This document shows positions 3,067 to 38,395 of a stretch of 64,000 nt of DNA, in pieces. Numbering within the stretch: the stretch's first letter is position 1; each line of letters begins with the position of its first letter. The notes below the pieces were generated by a model that did no database searches, was not told the DNA's origin, and worked only from the letters and a program-made list of their open reading frames with translations. Both the position numbers and the translations under genes were made by a program. Origin of the DNA: Polytrichum commune (taxonomy: Eukaryota > Streptophyta > Polytrichopsida > Polytrichales > Polytrichaceae); the NCBI GenBank assembly GCA_950295325.1, contig OX485807.1, positions 11,497,001 through 11,561,000 of the forward strand. Reading direction: 5' to 3'.

Positions 3067-6000
3067 ATGGCTAGGCGTGGAGCGACGGGGGCAAGCGACC
3101 TCCACCTCTGGGAACTAGAGGAGAGAGAGGCAGATAGATTGGGGCTAACGCATTACCGTTGCCCATGCAGGAACTGTATGGGAGGTCGTTGCATCAGTAG
3201 GGGAACCATTCGCAAGCATCTCAGAACCATCGGAAGAGACCCTCAATTCACTGTGCCTATTTTGGTATGTCTACATAACTACTAGGAGAACAGCTGTAAT
3301 ATGACTAGAACAGTTCAATATGGCATGGCCAACATTACTGGTTTTTATTAGAATTTGTGACTAGGTCTAGTCACATATGACTGATTCTAATCAAGGTTGA
3401 CTGTCATAAGTAACATCCCACCAAAACTAGTCATGCATTCTCACTAAATCCAGTCATATCGGACACGCAATCAGGTAATGTTCCAGTGCTAAAATACTTT
3501 CAACTATTAATTCCGGGGTGTGCTATGTTCAGGCTGGACTCGTGGATGCGGAACAGGACCTTGTTGAAGAGGAAGTTAGGGAAAGCCCTCATCAGCTGGA
3601 CAACAACAATGGGGGCATGGACGCAATAAGAATGATCATGGAGTGCCTCTCTAGATACGATAACCTCGAGGACGAAGACCGTGAGGATTGTAGAAGAACA
3701 GACGATGTGGAGGAGGACGACGCAATCCCCGGGGAGGAAGGGGATTGCACGGCAGATTTAATGGAGGAATTACTTGCGCATGCCCGAACTCCCCTCTTTG
3801 CAGGTGCCACAACAAGTCGCTTGGTCGCAACTCTGCTGCTCCTCAATTGCTTTGCGGTGTTTGGAGTATCGAATGCATTTGCTGATGAACTACTTCAACT
3901 GCTGCATATTCTCCTTCCAAGCGACAATTACCTACCCCGTTCCCACTATGAAGCCCGGAAGTATGTGGTGAAGCTGGGACTGTCCTATAACAACATTCAT
4001 GCATGCCGCAATGGATGTTGCCTATTCAGGAAGGAGTTGCAGGATGCGAAGTCCTGTCCAAAGTGCAACGCCCCGAGATACAAGTCGGAGTCCAGCCCAA
4101 TCCCATCCAAAATCCTACGCCACTTTCCGTTGATTCCCCGTCTGAAGCGCATGTACCGGTGCAAAAGATTGGCGGAACTTAACAAATGGCATGCCAATCA
4201 TAAGAAGGAGGGTATTAACGTGGAATGCGTCCCCGACTCGAAGGCCTGGAAGCATATTGATTCGTTGGATGCCAACTTTACAGATGAGCATAGGAACATA
4301 CGCTTGGGGATGGCATTGGACGGTGTGAATCCGTTCGGAAACCAGTCGCTCAGTCACTCGACATGGCCGGTCCTTCTGGTGAACTATAATTTGCCTGCAT
4401 GGCTAGTGACAAAGCCATTTTTCATCATGCTTGCATTGCTTATTCCAGGTATTGCTTACACTCAGCACTGATGACTGCATCTAGTAACCAGCATGGTAAG
4501 AAGGTTGACTGTGAATAGTGCAATTTCTGAAACCAGTCACCGGTTCCAGTATCTACACTCAGAATTGTTGACTGCATCTAGTAACGAGCATGGTAAGAAG
4601 GTTTACTATAATTTGTCTGCATGACTAGTGACAAAGCCATTTTTCATCATGCTTGCATTGCTTATTCCAGGTCGCGAGAGCGTGACCTCGGAGAACATCG
4701 ATGTGTACCTTACTCCATTGATTGAAGAGCTCTTGGAACTTTGGAAAGGGGTACCAGCCATAGATGTGTCTGAAGAGCCCCCAAGACAGCATTTTAAACT
4801 ACGGGCTCTACTTCTTTGGTGCATTCACGACTTCCCTGCGTACGGACTCACATCTGGCCAAGTCACAAAAGGGTATAGAGCGTGTACCGAGTGTGGGCCA
4901 GATGTTACAACTCGGCGGTCAAAGGCTCTTAGAAAGAATGTATATTTAGGTCACCGCCGGTATCTCAGTAGATGGCATCCATATCGTAGGCTCAGGCATT
5001 CATTTGATGGTCAACAGGAGTACCGACCTCCCCCTCCAATTCTAACAGGATGCGACATCAAGGGCTATGCACAAGAAAGATTGTCCTTCCTGCAAGAGTC
5101 ACAGGGAAGAAGAGGTGGAGGAGAAGGCGACCCCATTCAGCGTACCGGAGTGAAGCGGCTCTCCGCTCTGTACAAGCTTCCGTATTGGCAGGTACTTAGC
5201 GCATTCACAGGTTCCAGTAACTGACATTTAGAATTGTTGACTGAATCTAGTAACAAACACGCTTATCTGGTTGAATGTGAATAGTGCAATTTCTGAAATC
5301 AATCACTGGTTCCAGTAACTGATAGTTAGAATTGTTGACTGACTCTAGTAACAAACACGGTTAGCAGGTTGAATGTGAATAGTGCAATTTTTGAAATCAA
5401 TCACTGGTTCCAGTATGTTCAGTTATAATTGTTGACTGACTCTAGTAACCTGGTTGGTAAGAAGAGTGACTGTGAATAGTGCAATTTCTGAAATCCATGA
5501 CTGCCAGTATGGATGAAACAAAATATGGACCTATATCTTTTCAATGAATGCTTAAGAGTCTTTGTCGAAAGTGAGTAAATCTGACGCTGGAATGCTTTGC
5601 TGGGATTTCTGGCAGGACCTCCTCATTAGACATCTTTTGGATCCCATGCACTGCGAAAAAAACATCTGCGAGAACGTGATGAAAACAATTTGGGGAGTCC
5701 GTGACACTTTGAAGGCCCGGCTAGACTTAAAAGAGGCCAACATTCGACCATATCTGCACCCTCTTCCAGGAAGGAAACATGGGTCTGTCGTACTTCCAAC
5801 AGCTCCATATGTACTATCGAAAGAAGAGAAGGCAAAATTCATAGACATTATCCGCAATTTGAAGACTCCTACGAACTACGCTGGCCAACTTGCAAAATGC
5901 ATTGCGTCGGATGGGGACTTGAAGGGGCTGAAATCTCATGACTACCATGTCTTGATGCAACAATTGCTCCCCTTGTGTTTGCGCACTCTCTTAGACAGGG

Positions 6001-7692
6001 ATACGCGGGTGGCAATAATACGGCTTAGCCGGGTGTTTGTACGATTGTGCGCAAAATCCGTAGATCCCTCGTCCATGGAACAGTTATTGGAGTACACAGC
6101 TGAGACTCTATGCATGCTAGAGATGGTTTTTCCACCTTCATTCTTTGATGTCATGTCGCACCTCCCCATTCACCTGGTGCAGCAGTTGGATATATGTGGT
6201 CCCGTACACACCCGATGGATGTATCCTATTGAGCGGTACCTGAAGAGACTGAAGGGCTATGTTAGGCAACGAGCAAAACCTGAGGGATCCATGGCGAGGG
6301 GGTACACAATAGAGGAGGCGTTAGGATTTTGCACAGAGTACATGCAAGACTGTGAGCTAACACGCAGGAGGACTTGGGACGACGAGGAGGAAGTAGGGGC
6401 CAAGAGTGAGGTCGCGGAGGGTACAGGTCGATATCGACTCTTGACATCAGAGCTGAGGACACGGATTCACGAGTTTGTTCTCACGAATGCTGAGCCTCTA
6501 CAGTCATACAGAGAGTAAGCATCACATGTTTTAGTCATGCACTCTGTCTAGAAGGGACAATGTGACTCTATAGTCAACAAAGGTCTATTGCGTATTAATT
6601 CCAGTCATCATATTGCAACACATGACTAACAGATAGTAAGCATCACATGTTTTAGTCATGCACTCTGTCTAGAAGGGACAATGTGACTCTATAGTCAACA
6701 AAGGTCTATTGTGTACTAATTTCAGTCATCATATTGCAACACATGACTAGGGAATTAGATGTTGATGACGTTTACATTTATCTGCCGGCTGTTTTTGTTA
6801 TGTAAAAAAATTCCATCCACTGTGGCTTCCAATCAGACGTCACTACTTGGAGATGGAAGCGCGGCACAGAATGCGTGCAGAGATACGTCGTCGATCACGG
6901 GGCAGAAGAGCAGAGTATCCAGCAATCGCAAGGAATGAGCAGTTTTCTGAGTGGCTTCCAATCGCGGTGCAACGGGATGTGGCAGCAGGCACAGAGGTCC
7001 ATGAAGATATTCTTGGCCTTGTCCTACCACCTTCATGCGAGGCAAAATCGTATCGCAGCATGTATGCATACGGGAACCATATACGTGTGCGAGGAGCAGA
7101 GGGCCACTTGTCAACGTGCGACAGCGGAGTAGCTGCAACATTCTCACAATCTTGCCGTTCCAGCAGAAAGGACAAGAATCACAGGCTTGCGAACGTGGAG
7201 TACGTGGGGTGGGTTGAAGAGATTATTGGGGCTGACTATGGGAAGTTCGAAATACTCCTACTGTATTGCAAGTGGGTCCGCGCCACGTGGATTGGGCCAC
7301 GGGCAACTATGAAAAGAGATGAGTACGGTTTCACTCTCGTGAACATTGACCGTACCATTCCGTACTCATCAGATTCGTTTGCGTTTCCTCTTCATGCTCA
7401 ACAGGTCTTCTTTGTTGACGATGTGGCACATCCTGGATGGAAGGTAGTTCTACGCAAAGAGGCACGAAGTGTGAGAGTGACTTCCATGGCTGAAGGAAGA
7501 CCAGATCTACACTGCCTAAGCTTATGCGACGATGTTGTAACTCAGGGATTGATGGCACATCATGTCGCTGATGATACCGTAGCAATGCCACCTGTTTTAT
7601 CAAGTTCCAGGGAGCTTTCTAGCAACGAGGTGCAGCTTGCTATGCAAATGGAGGATACAGAGGCAGACTACAATGATGAATCACCACAGTAG
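3067..7692 (+). CDS. CACTA transposase (Tnp2/TnpD type), intact
   Basis: Five exons (3067-3264, 3533-4448, 4671-5191, 5616-6514, 6837-7692) join in frame with GT-AG borders into a 1,129-residue protein with no internal stop. Exon 1 carries the transposase-associated Cys-rich domain (HYRCPCRNCMGGRC). Exons 2-3 carry the Tnp2 core, including CRNGCCLFRKELQDAKSCPKC, DGVNPFGNQSLSHSTWPVLL and LRALLLWCIHDFPAYGLTSG. Exon 4 has LLDPMHCEKNICENV and a DUF4218-type block (HLPIHLVQQLDICGPVHTRW, MYPIERYLKRLKGYVRQ). Exon 5 has the DUF4216-like domain (EILLLYCKWVRA...GFTLVNIDRT). The protein would bind the element ends and cut and paste it. The start is the first ATG of the in-frame exon. The unbroken frame implies recent activity. 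No separate TnpA-like gene is evident between 7693 and the right end. Confidence 0.9.
4383..4672 (+). repeat. 68-bp direct repeat bounding CACTA intron 2
   Basis: A 68-bp segment ending in TTGCTTATTCCAGGT occurs at 4383-4450 and again at 4605-4672, with about four mismatches. The spacing is 222 bp. The first copy is the end of exon 2 and supplies the GT donor (4449); the second supplies the AG acceptor (4670). The intron (4449-4670) is therefore exactly one repeat period long. Between the copies is a ~60-bp module (TGACTGCATCTAGTAAC...GCATGGTAAGAAGG) that itself occurs twice. Confidence 0.9.
5192..5615 (+). repeat. ~98-bp tandem repeats in CACTA intron 3
   Basis: The 424-bp intron contains three tandem copies of a ~98-bp unit, anchored on AATTGTTGACTGA at 5232, 5330 and 5427 (spacings 98 and 97 bp). 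The unit includes GTGAATAGTGCAATTTCTGA and a variant of CACTGGTTCCAGTA. The same module is present in intron 2, so this repeat family is specific to the introns of this gene here. Confidence 0.85.
6515..6756 (+). repeat. 121-bp tandem duplication in CACTA intron 4
   Basis: Two nearly identical copies, starting with GTAAGCATCACATG at 6515 and 6636, lie at the 5' end of the intron. The donor GTAAGC used after exon 4 is duplicated with it, giving a second potential donor 121 bp downstream. Confidence 0.9.
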
Positions 7693-8423: not shown

Positions 8424-8639
8424 TCATAGCATGACTCTGGGAACCGGGCAGGAGAACATATGTCCCGTTCCCGTAGACGTTCCCACCCAGGTCCTCAAAA
8501 ATATGACTACGTATATGACTAGACCATGACTGGACCCTCTTAGGACTGATTTTAGACTAAACCAATGACTGAGGTGACTACATAGTCATATGCCCTTAGT
8601 CACATCCGGTCACATTGGGCTGGTTTTCTTGTAGTGTAG

Positions 8640-9305
8640 GGTGAATTTGATGCAAAGATAGGGGTCATAAAATATCAACATGATAATTAGGTAAAAATTG
8701 AGGCCTAGTTTTGTACAGGTGCTTAATAGTAGTGGCACTATACTGGTCTGCTTTACTTTTTCTAGGTAGACTCACTGAAGAACATCAGTGTATATGTTTG
8801 ATAAATTTCGTCTGACAGTCAACTTCAATTCCAAAGTGTTACATGACATTCTCAAAAACGAAACAAAAATGTCAATTGACATGTGCATTTGATTCTAGTA
8901 TGTCACCTGTAGTAGAGTCAAACGTCTCCTGTTGATTGCAAACAATCTATTTATTGTTACAGACATCCACGCTTTCCAGTATATAAGCTGCAAAGTTTGA
9001 AGATTAGGTGTTCATTAAACTAACCCTCAACATTAAGCTATTGTGGTGTGTAGTTACTGTGACTGCTCGAGCTCCTGGTGCTGATATGTGACAGGTTTCA
9101 TGTTTCATCCCAATTACTTTTGAGTTATAGCAACAATTAGAGCTGTTGGTAACTCAACATTTAAATTGTCTGTTGGTAACTCAACAATTAGAGCTATTGG
9201 TAACATTTAAAATGGTAACTCAACATTTAAATTGTCTGCATGTTGTGGTGGAACATGCTCCAACATTGTTGCTTTCCGGTATATGCAAGCTGAATTCAAT
9301 GGTGT
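8640..9305. other. Non-coding spacer between CACTA and hAT
   Basis: No supported gene. Around 9145-9240 a short motif (GGTAACTCAACATTTAAATT) is repeated with small changes. Confidence 0.4.
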
Positions 9306-10307
9306 GTGTGCAGGTATGCAGATGCAATAAATATTTGCTACAGGCGGCAGTCTACATCATTGCAAACTCGTGTGCCAACAAGTCTCACATGGGCAATTGC
9401 TCGAGTTGTGACGGAGACATTGACCCCTGTGGTGTCACAGTGCGTTCCAAACGAAACTCGCGGGTTCTGGTTGCTCAGTGATGCTTTAGTAGGGGCGTTG
9501 AAGTTGATGGTGCAAATGGAGGCGCAACAACTTGCACACAATTCAATTGAACCGCCCTTGGAGTGTAGCGAGTTTGACTCAGAGCTCGAAATTCTCTATG
9601 GACGGATGGCAGGACAGGTAGCAGCGGTGTTGAGGCCTTTTCTTGCTTTTTCCCACAAGTACGATGAAGGGCAAGCTCAGAACATGCTTGCTCTCATGCT
9701 CGATCCACGTTTCAAGGGATTGGAGTTACTACAAGATTATGTTGGCCGTGAAGTGGCGAAGAAGGTGGTGGATGAGTACGACACCAAAGTCTTGGTACCC
9801 ATGTTGGTCAAAGTGGCTGTAATTTTGTCTCCCATTGTTGTTGCACAACCAGCCGCTCTAATCGTCCCGCATGTCTCCCAAACTTCTTTGTTCGGTGCAC
9901 CAACTTCTACAGCTGAAGCAAGCAAGGGGCTGCTACTTGGCGAGCTCAGCCTCTTCCGGCGTCTTGTTGTTGAACCAATTAATGTTGCTTGTCCGTTATT
10001 GTGGTGGAAGGAACATGAATCGCGTTTCCCAACTGTTGCTTTTGTTGCTCGACAGTTTCTAGGCATACCAGGTAGTCAAATTGAGTGTGAGCGGATCTTT
10101 TCCATTGCCGGCATTCTCACATCCCTTCGCCGTTGTAGACTTGGTACGGAGAATCTCAATGCCCTTGTCATGATTCAAAAGAATTGGCCTTTTGATGCCC
10201 GCACAGATACACTTAGTGAGAGTGACATCATTCAATTCTTCAATGATGAAACAGAGTTGCTTGAAATTCATGAAGAGGAGTTGATTGCAGTGGGTGAGCT
10301 AGAGTGA
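9306..10307 (+). CDS. hAT transposase, C-terminal part
   Basis: An uninterrupted frame of about 330 codons. It contains LMLDPRFKGLELLQDY, typical of the hAT catalytic core's later half, and near the C-terminus the hAT dimerisation region: PLLWWKEHESRFPTVAFVAR, QFLGIPGSQIECERIFSIAG, and a following RRCRLGTENLNALVMIQKNW. The N-terminal BED zinc finger and the first part of the RNase H-like fold are absent. The frame opens at a CAG/GTATGCAG junction that looks like a splice acceptor, so earlier exons may be missing or lost; there is no ATG at the opening. No terminal inverted repeats or 8-bp target duplication were identified. Likely a 5'-truncated element whose remaining frame is undamaged. Confidence 0.8.
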   Translation: MCRYADAINICYRRQSTSLQTRVPTSLTWAIARVVTETLTPVVSQCVPNETRGFWLLSDALVGALKLMVQMEAQQLAHNSIEPPLECSEFDSELEILYGRMAGQVAAVLRPFLAFSHKYDEGQAQNMLALMLDPRFKGLELLQDYVGREVAKKVVDEYDTKVLVPMLVKVAVILSPIVVAQPAALIVPHVSQTSLFGAPTSTAEASKGLLLGELSLFRRLVVEPINVACPLLWWKEHESRFPTVAFVARQFLGIPGSQIECERIFSIAGILTSLRRCRLGTENLNALVMIQKNWPFDARTDTLSESDIIQFFNDETELLEIHEEELIAVGELE

Positions 10308-10689: not shown

Positions 10690-12861
10690 TCAATACCTCG
10701 ATGTTCTACATTTCCAAGAAATTTTCAAAAACCAGGCCTCCCCTGTATGCACTTTACAACATACCCGTTCAACACTGGTTTGGACGCGTGGTCGGGATAT
10801 ACTGATCTTGTCTAGCCTGTGAGATTCATGTTCGTCACCGAAAGCAGTATCTGGTTTACGCTTCAGAGAAACAAATACCTCTTCCCCTTCGAGGTGGGGA
10901 GTCCTGGTGCACCACTTGTCACCGCCAGGCATCTTCAAGATGGCCTCATGCAGCGGTTTCGAGTTTCATGTTTTTGCGGCTGACCTCTGAACACGCCTCA
11001 GCTTCAATTCCTCCTTCGACGGTCCAGTTCCAGGGTTCTCTCCCTTCAGGAATTGGGAATATGCTGAGCAGTGCATGAAAACACGCACGAAGTCATCGAC
11101 TGTTGCCACATAAAGGTCGCTGTCTCGATCGCCAGATTGATGCTTCCATTTGTTATGAATAGATTCAGCAAGGTTACAGGATGGCATTTCCGCTAGTTCA
11201 TCTTCACTTAGATCCTGCAATGAGAATACAGTCCAAAATTAGAATAATGGTGGAATCAATGTAATTGAACTATAAAGAATGAACTATAGAGGAAATATAG
11301 AGGCAAGTATAGACTTACCAACTCCATAAATCCACCTTATTGGCGGTAACGGAAATGCCAGAAGGCCAGCCAAAGCTCCAGTCGAGGTAGCGCTTGTTCA
11401 ATTGCTGCACCGGATGACATCCACCATGCCCGAATTGCCAGATACTTTGTCTCGGCCTCCGCCATCGATTTTGCATTCTTGTATTGCTGGCATAGTCTTC
11501 GATGCTGAGATTGTAGGTCTTGACGGATATCGGCCTTGGTATGTTTTTCCAAGGACTGCGTCCAATGGAAAAGACAAGTCCTCTCTCTGTCCACCATCTT
11601 CTCAAACGCATCTCCACTTCCGTATATGATTCGAACAGCATTCCAGTTGGCTTGGGCACTGTCGGTCATGAAACCTTTAAATTTTATTTTGTCCACTCCA
11701 TGTTGAGCCATGAAAGCGTTCAGGTTTTTCCATACGACTGACTGGGCTGCAACATCTTCAGACTGCATGTCGCATACTGCGATGGTCATGACACGGCAAT
11801 ATGTGGAATCGTACACATGGCAAGCCATTGTCGTCCACGAACTGACCTGTTTGACATGGTCAAACATTATCCAGGAGTTATCCAGGTCACCACCGGATTG
11901 CATTCGTTTGACCAGGTCGACTCTGCTGCCCGGTCCAACTTCAGACATCTTGAAGACAAAGACCTTGTCCATGTCCGCTCCTTGCCCTGGAAACATATTC
12001 TGCTGCACGAACTTCCAATTGCTAGCACCGCGTAACTTGGTAATATTGTCCATGACTCCAAAGTGACGGATAGTCCTGAATGTGGTGACTGCGTTACGAA
12101 TGTTGGGCGAGGTGAGGTGCTTACATCGATCGAAAATAACTTGCAGCTCGTCGAGCTCCAAGATCTTCTGTGGTTCACCTTCTTTAGCAAGGAGGAATGG
12201 GCCCAGTACTTCATTTGCAGTTTCAAGCACAATAGCTGAGCGAGTGGCTGATGGGGTGCGTTCGACTTGCTCCCCAATCAAGTTGTCTGTCAAATCGATG
12301 AAGTCCCAATGATCACCTGACTTGACGAGATGGTCGTGAGATCCCAAGTGCACACAAGCCCTCGTCATGTGAGGTGTCGCAATAACATAGTAGATCTTGG
12401 CAGGGCAGACAACAACACAAGTGGGAGGGACGTTACAGGATTTGCAAACAACGGCTGAACCAGTGGGAGGTTTGGACCCCACTTCAAACACTTTCTCAGA
12501 TAATCATTCCCACTCTGTTTCATTCATTTTGGAAGTCATGTGCTCTCGCTGAAGATACTCACAGGCATGATTGTCGCAACAGAGGTGGCCCAGGCTTCAG
12601 CAACCAGAACATACCGACGTCATTCTCTCCTCTAGTCTGACGAACTACATGTGAAACTAGACCGGTTTGATCGTCAAAAACTTCTTCTTCGACAAAGATA
12701 GTGACCTCACGATACTGAAACCTCAAACTTAATGTTGTACAAGTAACTATAGCATGACCATCTTCACCTAATGGAAAGAGGACCGGAACAGAACGATGTT
12801 CAGCACAAAGCAGGGCCATAGTATTCCACAGAACTCTGAACGAAACAAGTACTCTGAACAT
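10690..12861 (-). pseudogene. Mutator-like (MULE) DDE transposase, decayed
   Basis: The minus strand holds a 384-codon frame (12491-11337) and two further segments (11220-10966 and 10938-10690); a possible N-terminal piece is at 12861-12559. In order: a Cys-containing segment (VVCKSCNVPP, PHMTRACVHLGSHDH), then a DDE-type core with VMTIAVCDMQSED and KFKGFMTDSAQANWNAVRII as likely catalytic Asp positions and CLFHWTQSLEKHTK as the C-x(2)-H element, and finally SCNLAESIHNKWKHQSG, whose Glu fits the third acidic residue. That order and spacing suit the Mutator superfamily. A single in-frame TGA (near 10966) separates the LAESIHNKW exon from a continuing frame (KMPGGDKWCTRTPHLEGEE). I see no SWIM finger here. 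Superfamily assignment is moderate; transposase nature is fairly sure. Confidence 0.6.
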
Positions 12862-13383
12862 TGAAATGGCATGAATATACAGTGCAAACTGGTAATTTAT
12901 GTCACAGTAAGCGGAATTTCAAAAGTTAATAGAGAGTCATGCAGAGTAAGCTGAAAGACGACTAAAAAACCAATTTTAAATGTAAGTCCGAGATATGTAA
13001 GAAACCGATATCTATTTTAAACATAGTATTCCAATATAAATAAAGCTATAGAGGTGGTCGTATCATATACACTCACAACTTGTTATGTTTACCTGTTTTC
13101 AAATAGTAGAATCCAATAACAGGAATACATTCTAAATATGATAGTAGCTCTGCAATAATAAATTCCAAACATTAGAATGCTACATTGTGAATAACGACGA
13201 AGACGCTTATGGGGCCCTTTGCCATTATTGTCACCGTCATTGTTATGGTCCAACCCTAAACTATGAACTGCAGTGCATCCTGCTGAACCGAGTTTCTGTC
13301 GTTTGGGACGTGGGGAACTCCTTAATAGAGATCTAGAGTACGTGCCCGGTTTAATAACCCCTACTCTAGAATAGGCATGAGTC
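12862..13383. other. Non-coding, probable promoter region
   Basis: No ORF of note. It lies between the start of the minus-strand transposase and the plus-strand methyltransferase-like gene and ends at a TATA box, so it may hold divergent promoters. Confidence 0.35.
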
Positions 13384-13389
13384 TATAAA
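13384..13389 (+). promoter_or_regulatory. Candidate TATA box
   Basis: TATAAA in a locally GC-balanced context, about 140 bp before the first ATG (13525) of the methyltransferase-like gene. A 28-codon upstream frame starts at 13433 and stops before that ATG. Confidence 0.4.
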
Positions 13390-14095
13390 GTAGACTTTTC
13401 CTCTATCAGCGTTGCATCATCCGCCTGCAAAGATGGAGTCCGTGGATGTGAAACTGCAGATTAATTATCTAAATCCAAGAAAATGTGAACATAATGATGG
13501 TGGCGAGAGCATGTATTGTTAGAGATGAACACTAGGTCGAGAGCGAGAGCAGATCGAGAATTTAGGAGGACTATTGAAAAACAAAGGCGTATTGAGAGAA
13601 GGCAAATGTTAGAATCAAGAGAGAGCTTAGGGACGCCGTACAACTTGCGGACAACAATGGGTAGACGAGGGGTTAATTCTTCTAGGGGCATAGGTAGAGG
13701 TTCCAAAGGGGAAAAAACGTTTGATGTTTCAACAGTAGCTCCAATCGTTTTATTGCCTGTATTGGAGGAAGACAACCAAGTTGACAAAGGGGGCAGTGAG
13801 GTGATGTTTATGTGCAATCCTAATGATATTCTTTTATGTGCAATCATAATGTTAACTTCTATCACGGATAGTTAGAACAATTGAGACCCATTAACTTCCC
13901 TTGTTGTGTGGGCAATGTTATCGGCACCTTTATGTTGTGTTTTATGTTTGGTGTGGGATTGTGAATTGGGTTTGGTTTGGGCATCTGGAATAGGGAGTGA
14001 CGCAGACACAGGTTCAACCTGAGGCAACCTCCAGTGCCGTAACATCAGATCATAGTGAGGAGAAGGTTTGTAAAGATTGTTATCAATTGGTGAAT

Positions 14096-14125
14096 TTTAG
14101 GGTTTTGGGTTTAGGGTAAGGGTTC
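14096..14125 (+). repeat. Degenerate telomere-like tract
   Basis: About four imperfect copies of the plant telomere unit TTTAGGG in tandem, inside a proposed intron of the methyltransferase-like gene. Confidence 0.6.
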
Positions 14126-14289
14126 TTTCCAATGCTAACACTGTCTTAGGCCAACTTCATAGCTAATGAGCACATGACATATACACTTAACAGACCCTAG
14201 GCAAATTCGATCGCGGCGATGATATTGGTGATCTTCACGAAGCCAGCATGGATAATGAAGAGCAACACATCGGGTAGTTTGTCCCACAC

Positions 14290-15756
14290 ATGTAATCTGA
14301 TGTGAGGTTAGATATGAGTTAAGGTATGTGCAATCTGATGTGAGGATAGGTATGAGGTTAGGTATGTGTAATCTGATGTGAGGTTAGATAGGTCTGAATT
14401 TTTTTTCTAGTTGTGAGTATGAGTGTCTCGGGACCGAAACACTCTTTCTGGAATAGATTTGTGTGTAAAAAGTGTATTCTGATATGAGGTCAGATATGAC
14501 GTTATGTATGTGTAATCTGATGTGAGGTTAGATATGAGGTTATGTATGTGTAATCTGATATGAGGTTAGATATGAGGTTTGGTATGTGTAATATGATGTG
14601 AGGTTAGATATGAGGTTATGTATGTGTAATCAGATGTGAGGTTAGATACGAGGTTAGGTATATATGTGTAATCTCATGTGAGGTTAGATATGAGGTTATG
14701 TATGAGGTTACGTACGTGTAATATGATGTGAGGTTAGATATGAGGTTAGGTATGTGTAATCTCATGTGAGGTTAGATATGAGGTTATGTATGTGTAATCT
14801 CATGTGAGGTTAGATATGAGGTTAGGTATGTGTAATCTGATGTGAGGTTAGATATGAGGTTAGGTTTGTGTAATCTGATGTGAGGTCATATACGAGGTTA
14901 TGTATGTGTAATCTGATGTGAGGTTAGATATGAGGTTATGTATGTATAATTTGATGTGAGGTTAGATAAGAGGTTATGTATGTGTAATCTGATAAGAGGT
15001 TAGATATGAGGTTAGGTATGTGTAATTTGATGTGAGGTTAGATAAGAGGTTATGTATGTGTAATCTGATGTGAGGTTAGATATGAGGTTATGTATGTGTA
15101 ATCTGATGTGAGGTTAGATAAGAGGTTAGGTATGTGTAATCAGATGTGAGGTTAGATATGAGGTTAGGTATGTGTAATCTGATGTCGGGTTAGATAGGTC
15201 TGAATTTGTTTTCTAGTTGTGAGTATGAGTGTCTCGGGACCGAGACACTTTTTTTGGAATAGATTTTTGTGTAAAAAGTGTATTCTGATATGATGTCAGA
15301 TATGACGTTATGTATGTGTAATCTGATGTGAGGTTAGATATGAGGTTATGTATGAGGTTATGTATGTGTAATCTGATGTGAGGTCAGATATGAGGTTAGG
15401 TTTGTGTAATGTGATGTGAGGATAGATATGAGGTGAGGTATGTGTAATCTGCTGTGAGGTTAGATATGAGGTTAGGTATGTGTAATATGATGTGAGGTTA
15501 GATATGAGGTTAGGTATGTGTAATCTGATGCGAGGTGAGATATGAGGTTATGTATGTGTAATCTGGTGTGAGGTGAGATATGAGGTTATGTATGTGTAAT
15601 CTGATGTGAGGTCAGATGTGAGGTTATGTATGTGTAATCTGATGTGAGGTTAGGTTTGTGTAATCTGATGTGAGGTTAGATATGAGGTTAGGTTTGTGTA
15701 ATCTGATGTGAGGATAGATATGAGGTTAGGTTTGTGTGATCTGATGTGAGGTTAGA
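14290..15756 (+). repeat. 38-bp minisatellite array
   Basis: About 35 or more tandem copies of a 38-bp unit (TGTAATCTGATGTGAGGTTA then GATATGAGGTTAGGTATG). Adjacent TGTAAT anchors at 15021, 15059 and 15097 are exactly 38 bp apart. The array is interrupted twice by an unrelated ~75-bp insert (GGTCTGAATT...CTCGGGACCGA...GTAAAAAGTG) at about 14390 and 15196; the two inserts and their flanking units match, giving a higher-order period of 806 bp. The array sits between proposed exons ending at 14273 and starting at 15905, i.e. within an intron. No coding frame runs through it. Confidence 0.95.
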
Positions 15757-18431
15757 TTTAACGGGACTGACTTAATTGTGCGAAGAGTACTCTTTCTTTC
15801 CTTTACCTAGTAGAGTTCTTATATTTGGCATAGTGTTTTGGTTTTACATATGGCAACTATTTTGATTGCAAGGTTTATAGTGATGAGCTGTGTCTTACCC
15901 GCAGGTATTTCAAGTACGAGCTCCTTGCAAAAGGAGCAATAACAAAAGAAGATCTCCCCATATTTCTCTCTGCATGGCTTGACAGGTCTAACTCAACATG
16001 CATGTTCTCAGCAAATCAATAGCATACGTGGTCCACCTCACATCTCACAGGAGGTGGTTGGTACCTCGACTGTGCTCCTAGTTTCACTCCTTCCTTTGAA
16101 ACTGAACTTAGGAAGTCAAGGGAGGCAGTTGGAGAATCTGGTGTTGAGATGGTTGACTTACAGGGCATAGAAGACGAGCATGAGAGGGCAAAGGCCCTCT
16201 CGCGACGTCTAGAAGAGGATAGGAAGAATGCGCTTAGAGTAAAGGAAGCAGAGGAGAAAGCGACACAGAAAGAGATGGAAAAACTCCAGAAGTCGTTGGA
16301 GAACACTAACATGAAGGGGAAAAAAAAGATGAACCCCCATTCTAAGCCAGAAGGTAAAAGTCTTGTTTCTCCAAGCCCGACTAATGATTCTGGATCTCAA
16401 GCTCCTACTTTTTTCCAAGGTACAAAACGGGATTCCTCATACGACTAGTTGAGTCTTGTTTTTAATTTGGAAGAGGAGAACGAAAGCCACATTGACGAGC
16501 TCATTCTCAATGCCTCCATGAAGGAAGTCCTTGGCGGTAGCTTACATGACTACACCTCTTATTACAAGGACTTAAAAAGCTTCATGATTAAGGTATTTTT
16601 GCTTTTACATGTTATGCCAACAATAACGTTTTCAATTTTCATAGTATACAAAGTGAGAACAATTATACATATTCATAGCCATATTCGGAGTTGCTCTGAT
16701 CGTTTATGCTGGCTAATTCTTGTTAAAGCTGAATAGACAATACATTTCTTCTCTATTACTTAGCATCGATATGAATTTACTTTACTCTTGTCATCATTTG
16801 TTCAACTTCCAAGTGTACTATATTAAATTCGGCTCTAATTATTGTTAGGTACCAGTTCAGGTAATTTTGATGTACGTCTGTTTAGCCATTTGAAAGCCGT
16901 TAATTTGGTGTAGATGTACTAATTTCTGGGTGTGTTTGTTTACTGAGCAGCATTCCAAAAGCAAAGTTTGATTCTACAAAGGGACTACCGGTGTCCAACC
17001 CTGTGTGGACTTGATACTTGCCGATATCCCAGAGGGCTTGCCCGTTCCAGGGATCTCCAACCCACCAACGTGGATTCCTGCATGGAATCAAGAAACTTAC
17101 GAGTGGCTTCAGCCAATCTTTGATTTTGCAGATAACCATTTGCATGATGACGGGGCCATCATTTTATTTCACCCTTTTCAAATGACTACAAAAGCCATGA
17201 TTATTGGATATTGTGAGTGTTTCGGTTTTCAAGTTCGGAAGGATTGGTGGGGTATGAACCGCCTTCATCTGACGTCCCCGATTAACCAGTGTTTCACTGT
17301 AAGTTAATTCTCTAATTTAATTACTCGTTATTTTTTAACAATTCTAAAACATTGTTTGACACGAATGCTACATAATGATTTTCTCATATTTTTGGTTCAT
17401 TGTTCTCAGTTGACAAGTGTTGCTTGCAATGGCTAGTGTATAACTCAGTCCATAGGTCTTGGAATCTCATTGGCTAATGTGGAGTTCTGAACTGCTTTGT
17501 TCTGTATATTGAACTCAATAATTTTGGACCATGGTAGACTATGCGTTTCGGGATTACATTGGTGGTGAGGACCATGCATGCTTCCAAATTCTCATTTCAG
17601 CCTGTCCCCGCTCTTGACCGACACGGGGTAGATGTATCAAGAAATGATATTCTACATAACCTCGTCTCTCGTGAGGATGAGCTCATGAATGGACCCACGC
17701 CGTGGCGAGGTCCAAGAGAGAAGTCTACTCTTTTAATGCAAATGTTAATTCAGAGTTCTACCTCGCCTGGGGATGTTGTTTTAGACTGCACTGCTGCTAC
17801 GGGTATGTTAATTCAATCTTCCATATCACATCTTTAACTATTTGTTATTAGTTCCAAAGAAATCACACTAATTTTATTGTCATTCTTTTTATTGTAGGAT
17901 CTTCCATCCATGCGTCCCACAACGTCGAGCGTCACATTGTGGCATTAGAGGTTGATGAGGCCATTTTCCATGCCGTACTTAAACCCTTGATTCGTTCGAG
18001 TGTTGCTCCTGAGGTCACTTCTGGAGCAACGGCAAGTAGTGAGGACCCGGAGGGCGATGTACTTGTGGTCCCGAGAATTGTGAAGAAGTCTCGATTCAGT
18101 AAGTGAGATTGTTGAACAGTTTCTCATGCATTTGTTTTACTTTTGAGCGTCATTGTATCGAATATCGAGCCCTAAACATGGTACTTTTGGAATTTGCAGA
18201 TATGGACCAATGAACTATCCTAGTCACCACCCTTTCTTCTGTGACCCTACGTTTTATCCAAGTCCTCCAAAGACTTGGGATCTCCCTTCCTACGCAAATG
18301 ACACTGCAATTGAACTAGCTAGTGGATCTTATCGTACTGCTATTCCTAAATCTTATCCACGTAGCTGTACAGAGTTTTGTGATATTGAAGCTCTAGAGTC
18401 TGATTGTGAAGACTCCTCGGATGGGAGCTGA

Positions 18432-19379
18432 GTTATTCAGCGGTCACGGCATCCTCTACTGATTGGTTTCGTTTATTGGTTTATTGGTTCACTTGACAGT
18501 GTGGTCCAATACCTCTAATCAGTACGACAAAACTTTTACATACTGTGTTAAATGATTTTATTCAATCTCATTGTACTGACTGCCATTCATTTCTCAATGT
18601 CGCATATGCTCCCATTTATGAGTTTTTCCTTTTCGAGAGCAATTTATTTGTTTATTCGCATTCTAACATACATTTAGTACATATAGATAATTTATGTTAA
18701 CACGTTACAATTCTGTCCATAACCGCTGAATTATAATTTTATTTGTGAAAAGTATAATTAAGTTGAAAATATCATCGTAACTAGTTAACAAGGAGTATGT
18801 ATAATTGAATCCTATGACATGGCAAATCATTTTATCTTATTAAATATTGAGTTGGACTTTTATATCACATTAATTCTCAGCTAAAAAAATTCGACCCTTT
18901 AAACATATTGTTTTATGATATAAATCTTTCCCACGATTGTAATGTACTGTGCATATACTATATGACCACAAGAGTCACATCATTATTGTGTGGCTGAGTT
19001 ACAATTCAGTAAATCTGAAATCACGTTTTATTCTAATAATACAGATTCTTTAAATCCTTGATGAATAGTATTTCGCAAAATTAACTATAATATTATATGC
19101 TCTTAAGAATCTACAAAATGGACAAATGTTTATGAATTCATTGAGTATCCCATATGTATGTCTACTGAATGAGTATCCCATAGTAAGCGATGTTTTGCTT
19201 CATTATTATCATGCACTGCCATTCAAAAAAATTCCCTCCACCACAGATATAGGATATTTTTGTCAATAAATTTGGTAAATATTTCAAAAGTTGGCTCTAC
19301 ACCACGGTCATAGGGCATGTTTTGCCTGACAAAATTTCAATATTCTAGAAAACTTACCGCTCACCGCTCATCGCTCACT
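18432..19379. other. AT-rich spacer
   Basis: No recognisable gene or structured repeat between the methyltransferase-like gene and the SWIM-finger fragment. Confidence 0.4.
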
Positions 19380-19382
19380 AAA

Positions 19383-20094
19383 TAGCTTTTCCCGTATGGA
19401 CCGTCCACGGTCCTAACTCGTCTTTTGCACAATGCGATTGCCCCATTTCTCTACAAGGCATGATTTGCAAGCATGTAATGAAGGTTTTCAGGATGATCAA
19501 TTCTGGATTAGAAAACGAGTTTATACGAAGGGAGGCAAGTACAACATATGGGGTGAATAAGACTACGCCAATGTCGCAGACATTCAGCCAGGCCTCTACA
19601 TCATAGATTCCACCCACGTTGGATGTGATAAAGGAGGACAAACCTCAAGATAACTGCCCAGATGAAGCTGATTTTCCAATTTTCTGTAGTAACGTTGAGA
19701 ACATAACCCTCGTGGACACTGTATATTCCAGCCAAGGCATAGGTCTTTCAAGAGAAGAAGCGATTGATCTCACCCAGACGACATCAAGGTTAGTATCAAG
19801 ACCGCCTTCAGGGAATGCCAAATATTCTACAAATGACCCGGAGGCCATATTCCAGGACATAATTCTCATCTCCGAGAGCACCTTGTTGCAAACCTGAAAA
19901 ACATCCGTGGGAAGATGAACAAGATGATGGCAAGGGGGTTGGATCAGGCGAGCAGGTCCGAACTCAACCTACTATCCCCACCAAAGATGGGGACAATTCC
20001 TAGAAACGGAAGAAGGGACCACTTGAGAGGAAGTGCAGGCGAGCAAAGAGGTAGTGCTGAAGGGCGAAGAAGTGATGATGTAGGGTTGGGGTAG
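19383..20094 (+). pseudogene. MULE-type transposase C-terminus with SWIM zinc finger
   Basis: The frame reads WTVHGPNSSFAQCDCPISLQ then GMICKHVMKVFRMINSG. The C-x-C-x(n)-C-x-H pattern (CDC...CKH) is a SWIM zinc finger, found near the C-terminus of Mutator-like transposases and their FAR1/FHY3 relatives. The same frame continues after one TAG (about 19585) through an acidic tail to 19897; a shift to another frame gives a plausible end (LVANLKNIRGKMNKMMARGL...) with a stop at 20092. No DDE core is found upstream on this strand, so this is the broken tail of a second element. It lies on the opposite strand from the Mutator-like core at 10.7-12.9 kb and may be of the same family. Confidence 0.6.
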
Positions 20095-27723: not shown

Positions 27724-28578
27724 TTAAGCAGCAGCAGCTTCCTGGACAGGGTACTCAAATGTCACTTCCTTTCCTGTCAACTTCTTGTATACTCCGGAAT
27801 AGGTCTCTAGCTTGAACTCCGTGCTGTTCCTTTCCTTAGGGTCCAAGTACACGCGCATGATTCGAGATCCATCCAAACGATAACGGATCCGCTTGCCAAC
27901 AATCTCCGAAGGGTACACGAGGTCCTCCAGGATAGCCTCGTGCACGGAGGTCAAAGTCCTGCTGCGTGGCCTGTTCACGGCCGAGCCCTTCTTGGGGGGT
28001 CTGAGGATGCGCCTCGTAGCAATAACGACCACATCCTGGAGTACTTGCAATGCACATCATCAAAAAGCATATCCTCTCCGAGGTTTGTGCACATTCCGAC
28101 CATTAAACCCTAACAGAAGTTGGGCTTCCCCTCGTGCGCCGGGAACAATGTAAATGCCAATGCATGACTGAAAACCCTAAAAGACCCTCCAACACCAAAC
28201 ATTGAAGAACAAACGAGGACACAGAAAGGAGGATCAACATATCACAACGGGGAACCAATTTGGTCAAAAAAAATTTAGGGTAAGAGAATATTCGTAGAAA
28301 CGCACCTTGCCACTGAACTTCTTCTCCAACTCCCTCACGAGGCGGGCGTGGATCTTCTGGAAAGCCTTGCGCAGCCGGTACGGCACGTGGATGATCACGG
28401 CCTTGCGGTTGCCGGACACATCGACCTCCTTGGCGGAGTTGATATACAGGTCGCGAAGGTCGCTCTTTAGCTCGTTGTTGGTAGACTCCAGGTCGAAGAG
28501 GGCCTGGGCCACGGACTCCTCGAATTCATCGGGCTCCTGCCCTTTCTCCTTCTGAATCTTCCTCCTCGCAGTAAACAT
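27724..28578 (-). CDS. RPS7: 40S ribosomal protein S7 (eS7)
   Basis: Two coding exons, 28578-28306 and 28035-27724, joined in phase 0 over a 270-bp intron (GTGCGT donor, TCCAG acceptor), give 194 residues; plant eS7 is about 190. Exon 1 reads [20 protein letters not shown]...[16 protein letters not shown], ending [21 protein letters not shown]. Exon 2 begins [20 protein letters not shown] and contains [40 protein letters not shown] and a C-terminal VTFEYPV. eS7 is a component of the cytosolic small ribosomal subunit that also contributes to 18S rRNA maturation. The ATG at 28578-28576 was chosen because the family starts M(F/Y)-T-A-R-x-K-I; the upstream in-frame extension has no similarity. 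The promoter carries matching control elements. No damage is seen, so the gene is very likely expressed. Confidence 0.96.
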
Positions 28579-28715
28579 GGCTGCGGCTGAGGAACGAACA
28601 GGGAACCCCTGGCGATGGAGTGGGCGATGGCGTGGGAGGGCCAGCAGGCGAAAGAGAGAGAACACCGCCCTGCTCGCCCTTGTGCAAGAGAGACGCTTCC
28701 CAGACCTAGCCGCCC

Positions 28716-28741
28716 TTTAGGGTTGGCCCAGGCTCGGCCCA
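28716..28741 (-). promoter_or_regulatory. Telo-box and two site II elements of RPS7
   Basis: On the plus strand TTTAGGGTT (28716-28724) is followed by GGCCCA at 28725-28730 and 28736-28741; on the gene's strand these read TGGGCC, TGGGCC, AACCCTAAA. A telo-box beside paired TGGGCC/T site II motifs, within ~165 bp of the start codon, is the known arrangement in plant ribosomal-protein promoters, where TCP-type factors bind site II. Confidence 0.8.
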
Positions 28742-36630: not shown

Positions 36631-37453
36631 AGTCTAAAAACTTGGACCGCTTGACACTCCAGGTCGGTGAGGAACCCGTGCGGAAAATGGTGAACAAATT
36701 CCACCGGGGGAGGTCAGATGCATGGATGCGTGTGGGGACCGCCCGACCAGTCGGAATAAGCCTGCATATCTTGTAGGTTTCTACAGTTGTAACTTGTGGC
36801 AAATGGGATTCACCTGTAGACTTTTGATTCCACCCCTGACCCGGACCGAGTCGTCTTCATGGAACCTCGCCAGCTGAAAGTCGGATGCATGGAGCTGTTT
36901 CCCACACTTTAGAAACAGGAAGGAAGTTCATGGACTATGGTCGTCTTTGAATCCTGGGGCCCCGCTGACGATGTTTTCTCAATCGCACTGCGACGTAGTA
37001 TCCGATTGCCGGGATCCCAGTCGCATACACATGGGATACATGTGCCGTCGCTTTGATAACTCAAGTCTCCTTTTGGTGATGCACCGGGTGCTGGTTATGC
37101 GTATGAGATTTCTCACCGAGTTCACGTGAAGCTGGTCAAGGTGGCTGTGTCTGCTCCAAAGTCCCAATTGGCTCCAAGTTTGGGAACGAGACCGCGGAGC
37201 ACTGATTGATATGTGAAATTAATCCCACCAAGAGTTTCTTGAAAAGTTTCTGCAACCTAGCGCAAGTTTGCGTATTGTGGAACATAAGAGTTCCGCGGGG
37301 ACATTGGCTAGCTCTAGAGTGATTTGTATGCTCGTAATGCTCGTATGCAGAATAAAAGGAATTTTGAGGTTGATCGTGAACAGGGCGGCGGCAGGAGGAG
37401 GCTAATTACCTGTTGCATGTAAGAAGTAGGCACGTTTGAGTGATTGTGTGAAG
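36631..37453 (+). other. 5' flank of the syntaxin gene
   Basis: GC-richer than the surroundings, no separate gene. Expected to hold the promoter and 5' untranslated region; I see no strong TATA box. Confidence 0.35.
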
Positions 37454-38395
37454 ATGAATGACCTACTTGCACGAAGCTTCAACCGAGCGCGCGTTGCAAC
37501 CTCACCCAATGAAGAAGACCTCGAGAGCCGGGAGGCTCTCCATGCCAGTGTGGAGATGTCAGCCATGGCGAGGCCCAACGACGACATGGGCCACTTCTTC
37601 AAGGAGATTGAGACCATCAAGATCGAGCAGGACAAGGTGAAGCAGTTTCTGGAGAAGCTCCAGGACGCAAACGAGGAGGCCAAGACAATCCACCGAGCAG
37701 AGGCCATGAAGGCGCTCCGCCAGCGGATGGACTCCGACATAGCCTCCGTGGTCAAGTCAGCACGGTTCATCAAGGCGAAGCTCGAGGAGCTCGACGCGAC
37801 CACGGCCGCGAACCGCACGATGCGTGGCCATGAGGAAGGCACGGCTACGGACCGAACACGAGTCTCTGTCACCAACAGCCAGAGAGCGAAGCTGAGAGAG
37901 CTCATGCACCAGTTCCAAACCCTAAGGGAGCAGACGATGAGTGATTACAAGGAGACCATTACACGGCGGTTTTACACCGTCACGGGCCAGCAGGCTGACG
38001 AGGGAACCATCGAGAATATGATCCGCACAGGGGAGAGCGAGACTTTCTTGCAGCAGGCCATCAGGCAGCAGGGGAGGGGGAGCGACCTTCTTGACACTGT
38101 CCGTGAGATTAACGAACGGCACGCAGCCGTGAAAGAGATTGAGAAGCACTTGCTGGAGCTTCACGGCATCTTTGTGGACATCTCTGTGCTTGTGGAGGCG
38201 CAAGGGCAAACCCTCGATGACATCGAGAGCCACGTCAAAGAAGCAAGGTCGTTCACTGAGCGTGGTACCGTGCAATTGGTGAAAGCCAAGCGGCTACGGA
38301 GACGCAGACGCAAGTGGACATGCATCTGCATCTTACTGATCATCCTCCTCGTCGCTGTCTTGCTCATCGCCTTGCGGATCGCGGGCAAATTGTGA
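37454..38395 (+). CDS. Plasma-membrane Qa-SNARE syntaxin, SYP1 group (SYP12-like)
   Basis: A single uninterrupted exon of 313 codons. It starts MNDLLARSFNRARV, the N-terminus characteristic of plant SYP1 syntaxins; the ATG at 37454 was chosen for that reason. Residues about 45-160 form the Habc helices. The SNARE motif follows GRRFYTVTGQ-type linker sequence (RRFYTVTGQQADEGTIENMI) and IRQQGRGSDLLDTVREINER, with HAAVKEIEKHLLELHGIFVD and the zero-layer Gln in ISVLVEAQGQTLDDIESHVK. A basic patch (RLRRRRRKW) precedes one C-terminal membrane segment (TCICILLIILLVAVLLIALR). It would drive vesicle fusion at the plasma membrane or cell plate. The features VEAQG, DDIESHV and SF-x-GT lean to SYP12/KNOLLE rather than SYP13, as does the lack of introns. 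The coding sequence is much more GC-rich than its flanks. No defects seen. Confidence 0.93.
   Translation: MNDLLARSFNRARVATSPNEEDLESREALHASVEMSAMARPNDDMGHFFKEIETIKIEQDKVKQFLEKLQDANEEAKTIHRAEAMKALRQRMDSDIASVVKSARFIKAKLEELDATTAANRTMRGHEEGTATDRTRVSVTNSQRAKLRELMHQFQTLREQTMSDYKETITRRFYTVTGQQADEGTIENMIRTGESETFLQQAIRQQGRGSDLLDTVREINERHAAVKEIEKHLLELHGIFVDISVLVEAQGQTLDDIESHVKEARSFTERGTVQLVKAKRLRRRRRKWTCICILLIILLVAVLLIALRIAGKL

What the first reader, a model, noticed from the sequence alone, without database searches (positions are those of the whole stretch)
13525..18431. Spliced plant gene resembling a bacterial-type beta-class DNA methyltransferase
The order motif IV, then KST/PGDVVLD, then motif I and motif II is the circular arrangement of beta-class N4-cytosine and N6-adenine methyltransferases, rare in plant nuclear genomes. 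It is fused to a basic N-terminus and a coiled coil and is split by introns, so it is not recent bacterial contamination. N4-cytosine methylation by a bacterial-derived enzyme has been reported in Marchantia sperm; whether this locus is related is unknown. Motif IV reads DIPEG, implying a lost or altered activity.
Basis: partly seen in the sequence, partly recalled or inferred. Interest (0 to 1): 0.75.

Follow-up and report, generated by a model that had tools for sequence, protein, structure and literature searches.

The report
Moss transposons carrying an altered methyltransferase
The stretch is a worn-out copy of a large, many-copy "jumping gene" of a moss that carries, beside its own mobility gene, a bacterial-type DNA methyltransferase whose catalytic motif has changed and has been kept in the changed form, which suggests the transposon turned the enzyme into a helper protein of another kind.

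Summary
In detail: joined exons at 16972-18101 match Pfam N6_N4_Mtase (E 1.3e-10) in beta-class order. The reading as a plant gene does not. The "gene" is one half of a high-copy DNA transposon: 203 exon matches on the seven large contigs of what is most likely a moss genome. A complete element on C4 is 15.0 kb, with inverted ends, a 10-bp target-site duplication and two head-to-head genes: a transposase-like protein that matches no transposase family of Pfam, and the methyltransferase-derived protein. Ten of 12 examined end pairs have a 10-bp duplication, 9 exact. The window copy lacks the left end and carries three nonsense codons. Motif IV reads DxPEG in 20 of 21 distinct main-family copies and the first motif I glycine is lost, yet dN/dS between subfamilies A, B, C is about 0.09-0.11. 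An older lineage with related ends and the same layout has DIPYG. So the altered motif is a maintained derived state. Most likely an accessory factor, perhaps anti-silencing like VANC (inferred; long arrays lie in the same intron of the three elements where it was read). No link to Marchantia DN4MT1 was found or could be tested.

The parts
10775..19393 (+). left-truncated copy of a two-gene TIR DNA transposon (collinear with complete element E1, C4:31563589-31578598)
   Evidence: BLASTN window vs E1: 10775-12592 = E1 5556-7372 (94%), in order through 19235-19393 = E1 18945-19099
10775..12918 (-). remnant of the transposase-like gene, divergent from the methyltransferase gene; core ORF 11337-12503, N-terminal ORF 12559-12918; about 585 bp missing near 12591
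   Evidence: core 58-59% identical to L021, 91% to E1; gap vs E1 7372/7957; no Pfam match of the two window ORFs at E<=0.1
13525..13810 (+). exon 1: basic N-terminus of the methyltransferase-derived protein (end approximate); further short exons up to 14279 are likely but not verified
   Evidence: ORF, and 82% DNA identity to E1 and E2 over about 13511-14132/14291
14291..15757 (+). 38-bp tandem array, about 38.6 copies, inside an intron of the methyltransferase gene; core ATCTGAT[GT]T[GA]AG 16 times on the + strand, 0 on the other
   Evidence: arrays of other units in the same intron of E1 and E2
15905..16592 (+). exon 2: conserved N-terminal domain (YFKYELL...GGGWYLD), charged stretch and linker; nonsense codons at 16020-16022 and 16446-16448
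   Evidence: open at these codons in L013, L014 and L016
16951..17301 (+). exon 3: motif IV DIPEG and following strands; nonsense codon 16969-16971
17538..17803 (+). exon 4: EKST, PGDVVLDCTAATG (motif I); 3 codons shorter than in other copies
17898..18100 (+). exon 5: acidic residue after motif I (VALEVDE) and helix
18200..18431 (+). exon 6: conserved C-terminus (YPSH.PFFCDP.FYPSPPK)
19355..19393 (-). right terminal inverted repeat, ...CGCTCACTAAATAGCTTTTCCC
   Evidence: 3 mismatches in 22 to the E1 TIR; same end point in L018, L019, L020

Best explanation
Shown: 13525-18431 is the second gene of a large TIR DNA transposon (pairs of ends with a 10-bp target-site duplication lie 14-22 kb apart) that has spread to well over a hundred places in what is most likely a moss genome; the window holds a left-truncated, pseudogenised copy. 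The other gene, read in the opposite direction, encodes a large protein, most likely the transposase (inferred from linkage and a sub-threshold SWIM match). Shown: the methyltransferase-derived protein (basic N-terminus, conserved N-terminal domain, charged linker, beta-class amino-methyltransferase domain, C-terminal tail) has been under strong purifying selection while its motif IV was DxPEG and its motif I lacked the first glycine. Inferred (probability about 0.35): the protein works as a transposon accessory factor that recognises element DNA, perhaps the tandem arrays in its own intron, and promotes expression or movement against host silencing, as VANC does for VANDAL elements, with methyl transfer lost or changed. 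Inferred (about 0.5): the DIPYG lineage is close to the ancestral, possibly still catalytic, state. The confidence figure is for the shown part.
For: Copy number: 203 exon matches at E<=1, those listed all at E<=4e-37, on C1-C7. Recent mobility: four copies on four contigs 98.0-98.7% identical over about 2.8 kb. Linkage: 31 of 86 listed transposase-like matches within 20 kb of one of 125 places taken from the list (chance mean 1.2, maximum 6 in 2000 trials), 28 of them head-to-head. Ends: 25-mer 178 times at up to 2 mismatches, 0 in the reversed control; using the 99 exact ends listed, 27 of 125 places have one within 4 kb on the 3' side in the right orientation, 0 in the wrong one, 2 on the other side. 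Duplications: 8 of 10 pairs (7 exact, 1 with one mismatch), plus E1 and the older-lineage element, both exact. Domain: 6 of 6 sequences from five subfamilies match PF01555. Selection: dN/dS 0.085-0.112 between A, B and C at dS 1.4-1.7. Older lineage with the same layout. Intron arrays.
Against: The transposase-like protein matches no Pfam transposase; its only Pfam matches are chance-level (zf-MYND E=0.096, YopH_N 0.19, UPF0179 8.4) and it shows no likeness to MULE profiles, so 'transposase' rests on linkage, ends and a SWIM match at E=0.039 in one of three C-termini scanned. The core motif of the window and E1 arrays is absent from the E2 array, so a shared binding site is not shown; no array scored over 150 in L021 and the older-lineage element has only a short one elsewhere. 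The kept acidic residue and the strong constraint leave methyl transfer open. dS values are near saturation and element modules recombine, so the ratios are rough. No expression or protein data.
Confidence: 0.9

Rival explanations
1. Transposon-borne but catalytically active amino-methyltransferase: it writes N6-methyladenine or N4-methylcytosine on element DNA, which regulates transposase binding (as Dam does for Tn10) or blocks host silencing.
For: Domain strongly conserved; acidic residue after motif I kept; older lineage has DIPYG and GxG in L028. DIRS retrotransposons carry Dam-like enzymes (PMC5890265, passages).
Against: Main family has Glu in place of the aromatic of DPPY/SPPY in 21 of 21 distinct copies read, and no first motif I glycine in 20 of 20 distinct copies read; in bdelloid N4CMT changing Ser and Tyr of SPPY to Ala abolishes activity (PMC8885841, passages).
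Confidence: 0.25
2. Inert structural domain: the methyltransferase fold is kept only as a scaffold for oligomerisation or for holding the transposase, with no DNA target of its own.
For: Altered catalytic and SAM motifs under purifying selection; head-to-head pairing with the transposase-like gene.
Against: Long intron arrays in window copy, E1 and E2 could be a DNA target; not tested, and they could be neutral.
Confidence: 0.25
3. Host plant gene of bacterial origin, an orthologue of Marchantia DN4MT1, that happens to lie near repeats.
For: Beta-class domain and introns.
Against: Copy number, TIRs, target-site duplications and a linked second gene; extra N-terminal domain; no close prokaryotic relative found.
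Confidence: 0.02
4. Contamination by bacterial DNA.
For: Two small contigs of this assembly (C10, C12) do look bacterial or phage-like.
Against: The window lies on a 52.9-Mb contig with syntaxin, MoaC and RPS7e genes and the gene is spliced.
Confidence: 0.01

Closest known systems
VANDAL (MULE) elements with the VANC anti-silencing gene, Arabidopsis (PMC5735166, abstract and one section read; PMC13317346, passages)
   Same: MULE-type element with transposase plus accessory gene; tandem repeats, among other places in introns of VANC21 and VANB21, that differ between related elements
   Different: VANC has DUF1985, no methyltransferase domain, and VANDALs are called non-TIR; here the accessory protein derives from a beta-class amino-methyltransferase, the ends are inverted repeats and the transposase is not recognised by Pfam
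Retrotransposons with methyltransferases: SymbioLINE-Dnmt, SymbioDIRS-Dnmt3, DIRS with Dam-like enzymes (PMC5890265, passages)
   Same: transposable element that carries a DNA methyltransferase gene
   Different: retrotransposons, C5-cytosine or Dam-like enzymes; here a TIR DNA transposon with a beta-class domain and altered motif IV
[quoted passage not shown]
   Same: DNA transposon with transposase and a methyltransferase
   Different: mariner, with endonuclease partner, Methyltransf_26 or C5 enzyme; in viruses, not in a plant nuclear genome
Fungal DNA transposons with TET/JBP dioxygenase (PMC12730594, abstract start and passages)
   Same: DNA transposon carrying an enzyme of DNA modification as accessory gene
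   Different: dioxygenase, not methyltransferase; fungi
Bdelloid N4CMT and Marchantia sperm 4mC enzyme (PMC8885841, passages)
   Same: bacterial-type amino-methyltransferase in a eukaryote
   Different: host genes, SPPY (N4CMT); Marchantia enzyme without extra domains; not in transposons

Membership tests
Beta-class N6A/N4C DNA methyltransferase (PF01555) | significant match to the family profile | tested here: met
   E=1.3e-10; 6 of 6 sequences of A1
Beta-class N6A/N4C DNA methyltransferase (PF01555) | motif IV before motif I and II | tested here: met
Beta-class N6A/N4C DNA methyltransferase (PF01555) | catalytic motif (D/N/S)PP(Y/F/W) | tested here: not met
   23 distinct copies: DxPEG 20, DILEG 1, DIPYG 1, DIPDG 1
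Beta-class N6A/N4C DNA methyltransferase (PF01555) | motif I GxG | tested here: not met
   0 of 20 distinct main-family copies read; present (VGTG) only in the older lineage, L028 and L029
Beta-class N6A/N4C DNA methyltransferase (PF01555) | methyl transfer to DNA | not testable with these tools
   no biochemistry
Mutator-like element (MULE) | TIRs and 8-11-bp target-site duplications | tested here: met
   range from the table passages of PMC6446971
Mutator-like element (MULE) | MULE (PF10551) transposase domain | tested here: not met
   no PF10551 match at E<=10; profile comparison with five MULE sequences of the same genome: probability 0.1 of 100, with a thin profile
Mutator-like element (MULE) | SWIM zinc finger at transposase C-terminus | tested here: inconclusive
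   PF04434 E=0.039, below cut-off, in one of three C-termini scanned
VANC anti-silencing protein | DUF1985 domain | tested here: not met
   not among the Pfam matches of exons 1-5 at E<=10; exon 6 not scanned
VANC anti-silencing protein | tandem-repeated target motifs in element non-coding regions | tested here: inconclusive
   arrays in the intron of window copy, E1, E2; core motif shared by window and E1 only; binding not tested
DN4MT1 (Marchantia 4mC methyltransferase) | orthology by phylogeny | not tested
DN4MT1 (Marchantia 4mC methyltransferase) | no additional N- or C-terminal domains | tested here: not met
   conserved exon 2 domain under constraint and C-terminal exon; feature taken from PMC8885841

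The most novel reading that the evidence does not exclude
A plant DNA-transposon superfamily, with a transposase outside known Pfam families, captured a beta-class amino-methyltransferase long ago and remade it into a sequence-specific factor that reads the minisatellite in its own intron: the older lineage still writes 6mA or 4mC on element DNA, the successful high-copy lineage turned the writer into a non-catalytic anti-silencer.
Probability: 0.25. Interest if true: 0.85.

Novelty: new variant of a known kind. Interest (0 to 1): 0.62.

Why it matters
Few transposons are known to carry enzymes of DNA modification, and the listings of my ten paper searches (capped, open-licence papers only) showed none for a TIR transposon of a land plant with an N6/N4-type methyltransferase. 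It makes a clear question testable: when a transposon keeps a methyltransferase fold but changes its catalytic motif, what does the protein do? One genome holds many copies and two lineages (DxPY and DxPE), so activity, DNA binding and escape from silencing can be compared directly. It also warns annotators: amino-methyltransferase "genes" found by domain search in moss genomes may be transposon cargo.

Tried and rejected
Host gene or DN4MT1 orthologue: rejected by copy number, ends and duplications. Bacterial contamination: rejected. Recent bacterial or viral source: viral contigs (53 stretches, none confirmed), genome contigs (37 stretches, none confirmed), 3 genomes (2 weak matches at E<=0.001), 198 genomes (0 at E<=1e-6) and 398 genomes (4 at E<=1e-6, best 1.8e-7). 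The profile has only 6 rows and one search had no positive control, so a distant source is not excluded. No tree was built: outgroups too few and too distant. Helitron: considered because of the sharp 3' end; rejected by TIRs and duplications. Transposase identity by Pfam, PDB profile (best E 0.42), MULE profile comparison and structure (window protein alone, pLDDT 34, unusable): all failed. Shared array motif: window 16, E1 13, E2 0, upstream part of L014 1, remaining 44 kb of the window 0. CpG observed/expected: elements 0.60-0.64, E1 flank 0.71, window 20-64 kb 0.53; not informative. A first count of ends near methyltransferase copies used only 68 of the 125 places, chosen by me; it was redone with all 125, and only that is used. 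Two of ten end pairs (C4:31628836 and C6:35299577) show no duplication. In E2 only one end candidate, with 5 mismatches, was seen and not followed. The motif count held two places twice (L006/L013, L008/L014) and missed two copies (L012, L015); corrected.
Full report
What is there. The window is C5:11497001-11561000 of a 408-Mb assembly of 64 contigs. The plastid PsaB of this assembly scores highest against 7ksq, 6l35 and 8htu (1671.8 bits each; next sequence 1634.3), which I recall as the Physcomitrium photosystem I entries, so the host is most likely a moss; the species is not known. The region 13525-18431 reads as a spliced gene with GT/AG borders. Its joined exons 3-5 match N6_N4_Mtase and the family profile matches solved beta-class enzymes; in the alignment to 5hek, DIPEG falls on DPPYN, in a stretch that scores only 7.2 bits by itself.

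It is repeated. The 254-aa query gives 203 exon matches at E<=1 (149 of 2,331 candidates scored, so probably a lower bound); those listed lie on C1-C7 at E<=4e-37. From the list I took 125 distinct places, 117 by exon 3 and 8 by exon 4. Groups by identity to the window copy: about 81-88% (A), 64-70% (B), 71-75% (C) and one 59% (D). Four A copies on C4, C7, C5 and C6 are 98.0-98.7% identical over about 2.8 kb, so the family moved recently.

It is a transposon. L018 (B), L019 and L020 (C) and the window share one sharp right end...AATAGCTTTTCCC; the four A copies end ...ACTAACTTTCCCC. Upstream of the methyltransferase gene, on the other strand, lies a second gene; its homologue is open for 1241 aa in L021 (a likely intron included) and is in the window at 12918-10775. 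Of 86 listed matches to it, 31 lie within 20 kb of one of the 125 places, against 1.2 by chance, 28 of the 31 head-to-head and 3 on the same strand. The element E1 is complete: C4:31563589-31578598, inverted ends of about 29 bp, flanked by CCGGAACCTC on both sides. The end 25-mer occurs 178 times at up to 2 mismatches, never in the reversed control. Ten inverted pairs were cut out: 7 have an exact 10-bp duplication, 1 has 9 of 10, 2 have none; the eight with a duplication are 14-22 kb long. In E1 and in the cut-out pairs that hold a listed methyltransferase match, the methyltransferase-side end begins GGGAA(A)AGC and the other end GGACGAAGC or nearly so. Using the 99 exact ends listed, 27 of 125 places have one within 4 kb on the 3' side in the right orientation, none in the wrong orientation, and 2 on the other side.

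The window copy. It is collinear with E1 from 10775 to 19393 but lacks E1's left 1.46 kb, has lost about 585 bp inside the transposase-like gene and has nonsense codons at 16020-16022, 16446-16448 and 16969-16971 where L013, L014 and L016 are open. A hAT fragment lies to its left, a SWIM-finger coding stretch to its right.

The altered motif is the rule. In 23 distinct copies with motif IV read (window and E1, E2 included): DxPEG 20, DILEG 1 (L016), DIPYG 1 (L028), DIPDG 1 (L029). Motif I is DCTAATG or close in 20 of 20 distinct main-family copies read, with VGTG in L028 and L029. Between A, B and C, dN/dS over 187 codons of exons 3+4 is 0.085-0.112 at dS 1.4-1.7; against D, dS is saturated in 4 of 5 pairs and the fifth gives 0.073. 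Exon 2 is constrained too, but its distances differ between two copies of one group (L017, L018), which points to recombination between elements. Close pairs give higher ratios: window against an A copy 0.24, two B copies 0.32, as expected if copies decay after insertion.

An older lineage. L028 (C1) and L029 (C4) are 98% identical over 3.7 kb and carry an open 577-aa frame with the GGGWYLD block and the methyltransferase domain. Their right ends (...CCGCTCACAAGATAGCACTCCCC) resemble the main family's; for L028 the left end GAGGGAAGCTATTTTATGAGCG follows TCTGTTACCT, which is repeated exactly at the right end, so this element spans C1:9648778-9663944, 15.2 kb. On its other strand is a diverged homologue of the transposase-like protein (52% identical to the window's). 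So the pairing of the two genes is older than the split between the DxPY and DxPE lineages.

How it may work. Shown: mobile element, two genes, conserved altered domain. Inferred: the second protein helps the element. VANC of VANDAL elements is the nearest working model: its targets form tandem repeats, among them in the introns of VANC21 and VANB21, and differ between related elements (PMC5735166, abstract and one section read). Here the window copy, E1 and E2 each have a long array in the same intron, with different units; L014, L016 and L018 also hold arrays in the stretches fetched, L021 none scoring over 150. Window and E1 share ATCTGAT[GT]T[GA]AG, E2 does not. The older-lineage element has a 105-bp unit repeated 3.6 times, between the two genes. 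This fits co-evolving targets but is equally what neutral minisatellites would give. Against VANC: VANC proteins vary fast, whereas here the methyltransferase domain is better conserved than the transposase-like protein (dN B-C 0.15 against 0.42). Whether SAM is bound is unknown.

What is known. The word methyltransferase does not occur in the MULE survey PMC6446971 or the gene-capture review PMC13317346, of which I saw passages. PMC12730594 names VANDAL, SET and TET carriers (passages). PMC5890265 describes retrotransposons with C5 enzymes and mentions Dam-like enzymes in DIRS (passages). PMC3627910 reports mariners with methyltransferases in viruses (passages). The listings of my ten searches showed no paper on a plant TIR transposon with an amino-methyltransferase; several listings were capped at 8-15 of many, and the library holds only open-licence papers, so this is weak evidence of novelty.

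Verdict. Observation confirmed; interpretation partly supported; a new variant of a known kind (DNA transposon with an epigenetic-type accessory gene). Interest 0.62.

Noticed in passing
window 3479-4471 (+) and 9294-10307 (+): CACTA transposase (PF02992, 4.8e-27) and hAT dimerisation domain (PF05699, 1.2e-14) left of the element.
   Followed up: partly
window 28264-28716 (-), 37430-38395 (+), 62386-63165 (+): Host genes: ribosomal protein S7e, syntaxin/SNARE, MoaC; they support that the window is eukaryotic nuclear DNA.
   Followed up: partly
window 19382-19606 (+): SWIM zinc finger (PF04434, 2.2e-4, over cut-off) directly right of the element end: the element may have jumped into another SWIM-type gene or transposon.
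   Followed up: no
L030 (C10, 47 kb, 63% GC) and L031 (C12, 61 kb): Contigs with PF01555 enzymes with canonical motif IV (ADPPYG, CDPPYG) that look bacterial or phage-like, probably contamination of the assembly.
   Followed up: partly
L021 (C3:47773000-47782700): Transposase-like ORF of group-B type next to a group-D methyltransferase gene on the same strand; looks like a mosaic or two abutting elements.
   Followed up: no
L069 6845-7761 (+): Kinase-looking ORFs (HCDLSFTNI..IGDWGSA, by eye) between the two genes of the older-lineage element; no Pfam match.
   Followed up: partly
L018 vs window exon 2; E1 8556-9970 vs E2: Exon 2 and the intergenic region are far more alike between subfamilies (84-87%) than the methyltransferase exons, as if elements exchange modules.
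   Followed up: partly
C4:31628836-31635476: 6.6-kb pair of inverted ends around a transposase-like match (C4:31631971) without a listed methyltransferase match; no target-site duplication found.
   Followed up: no
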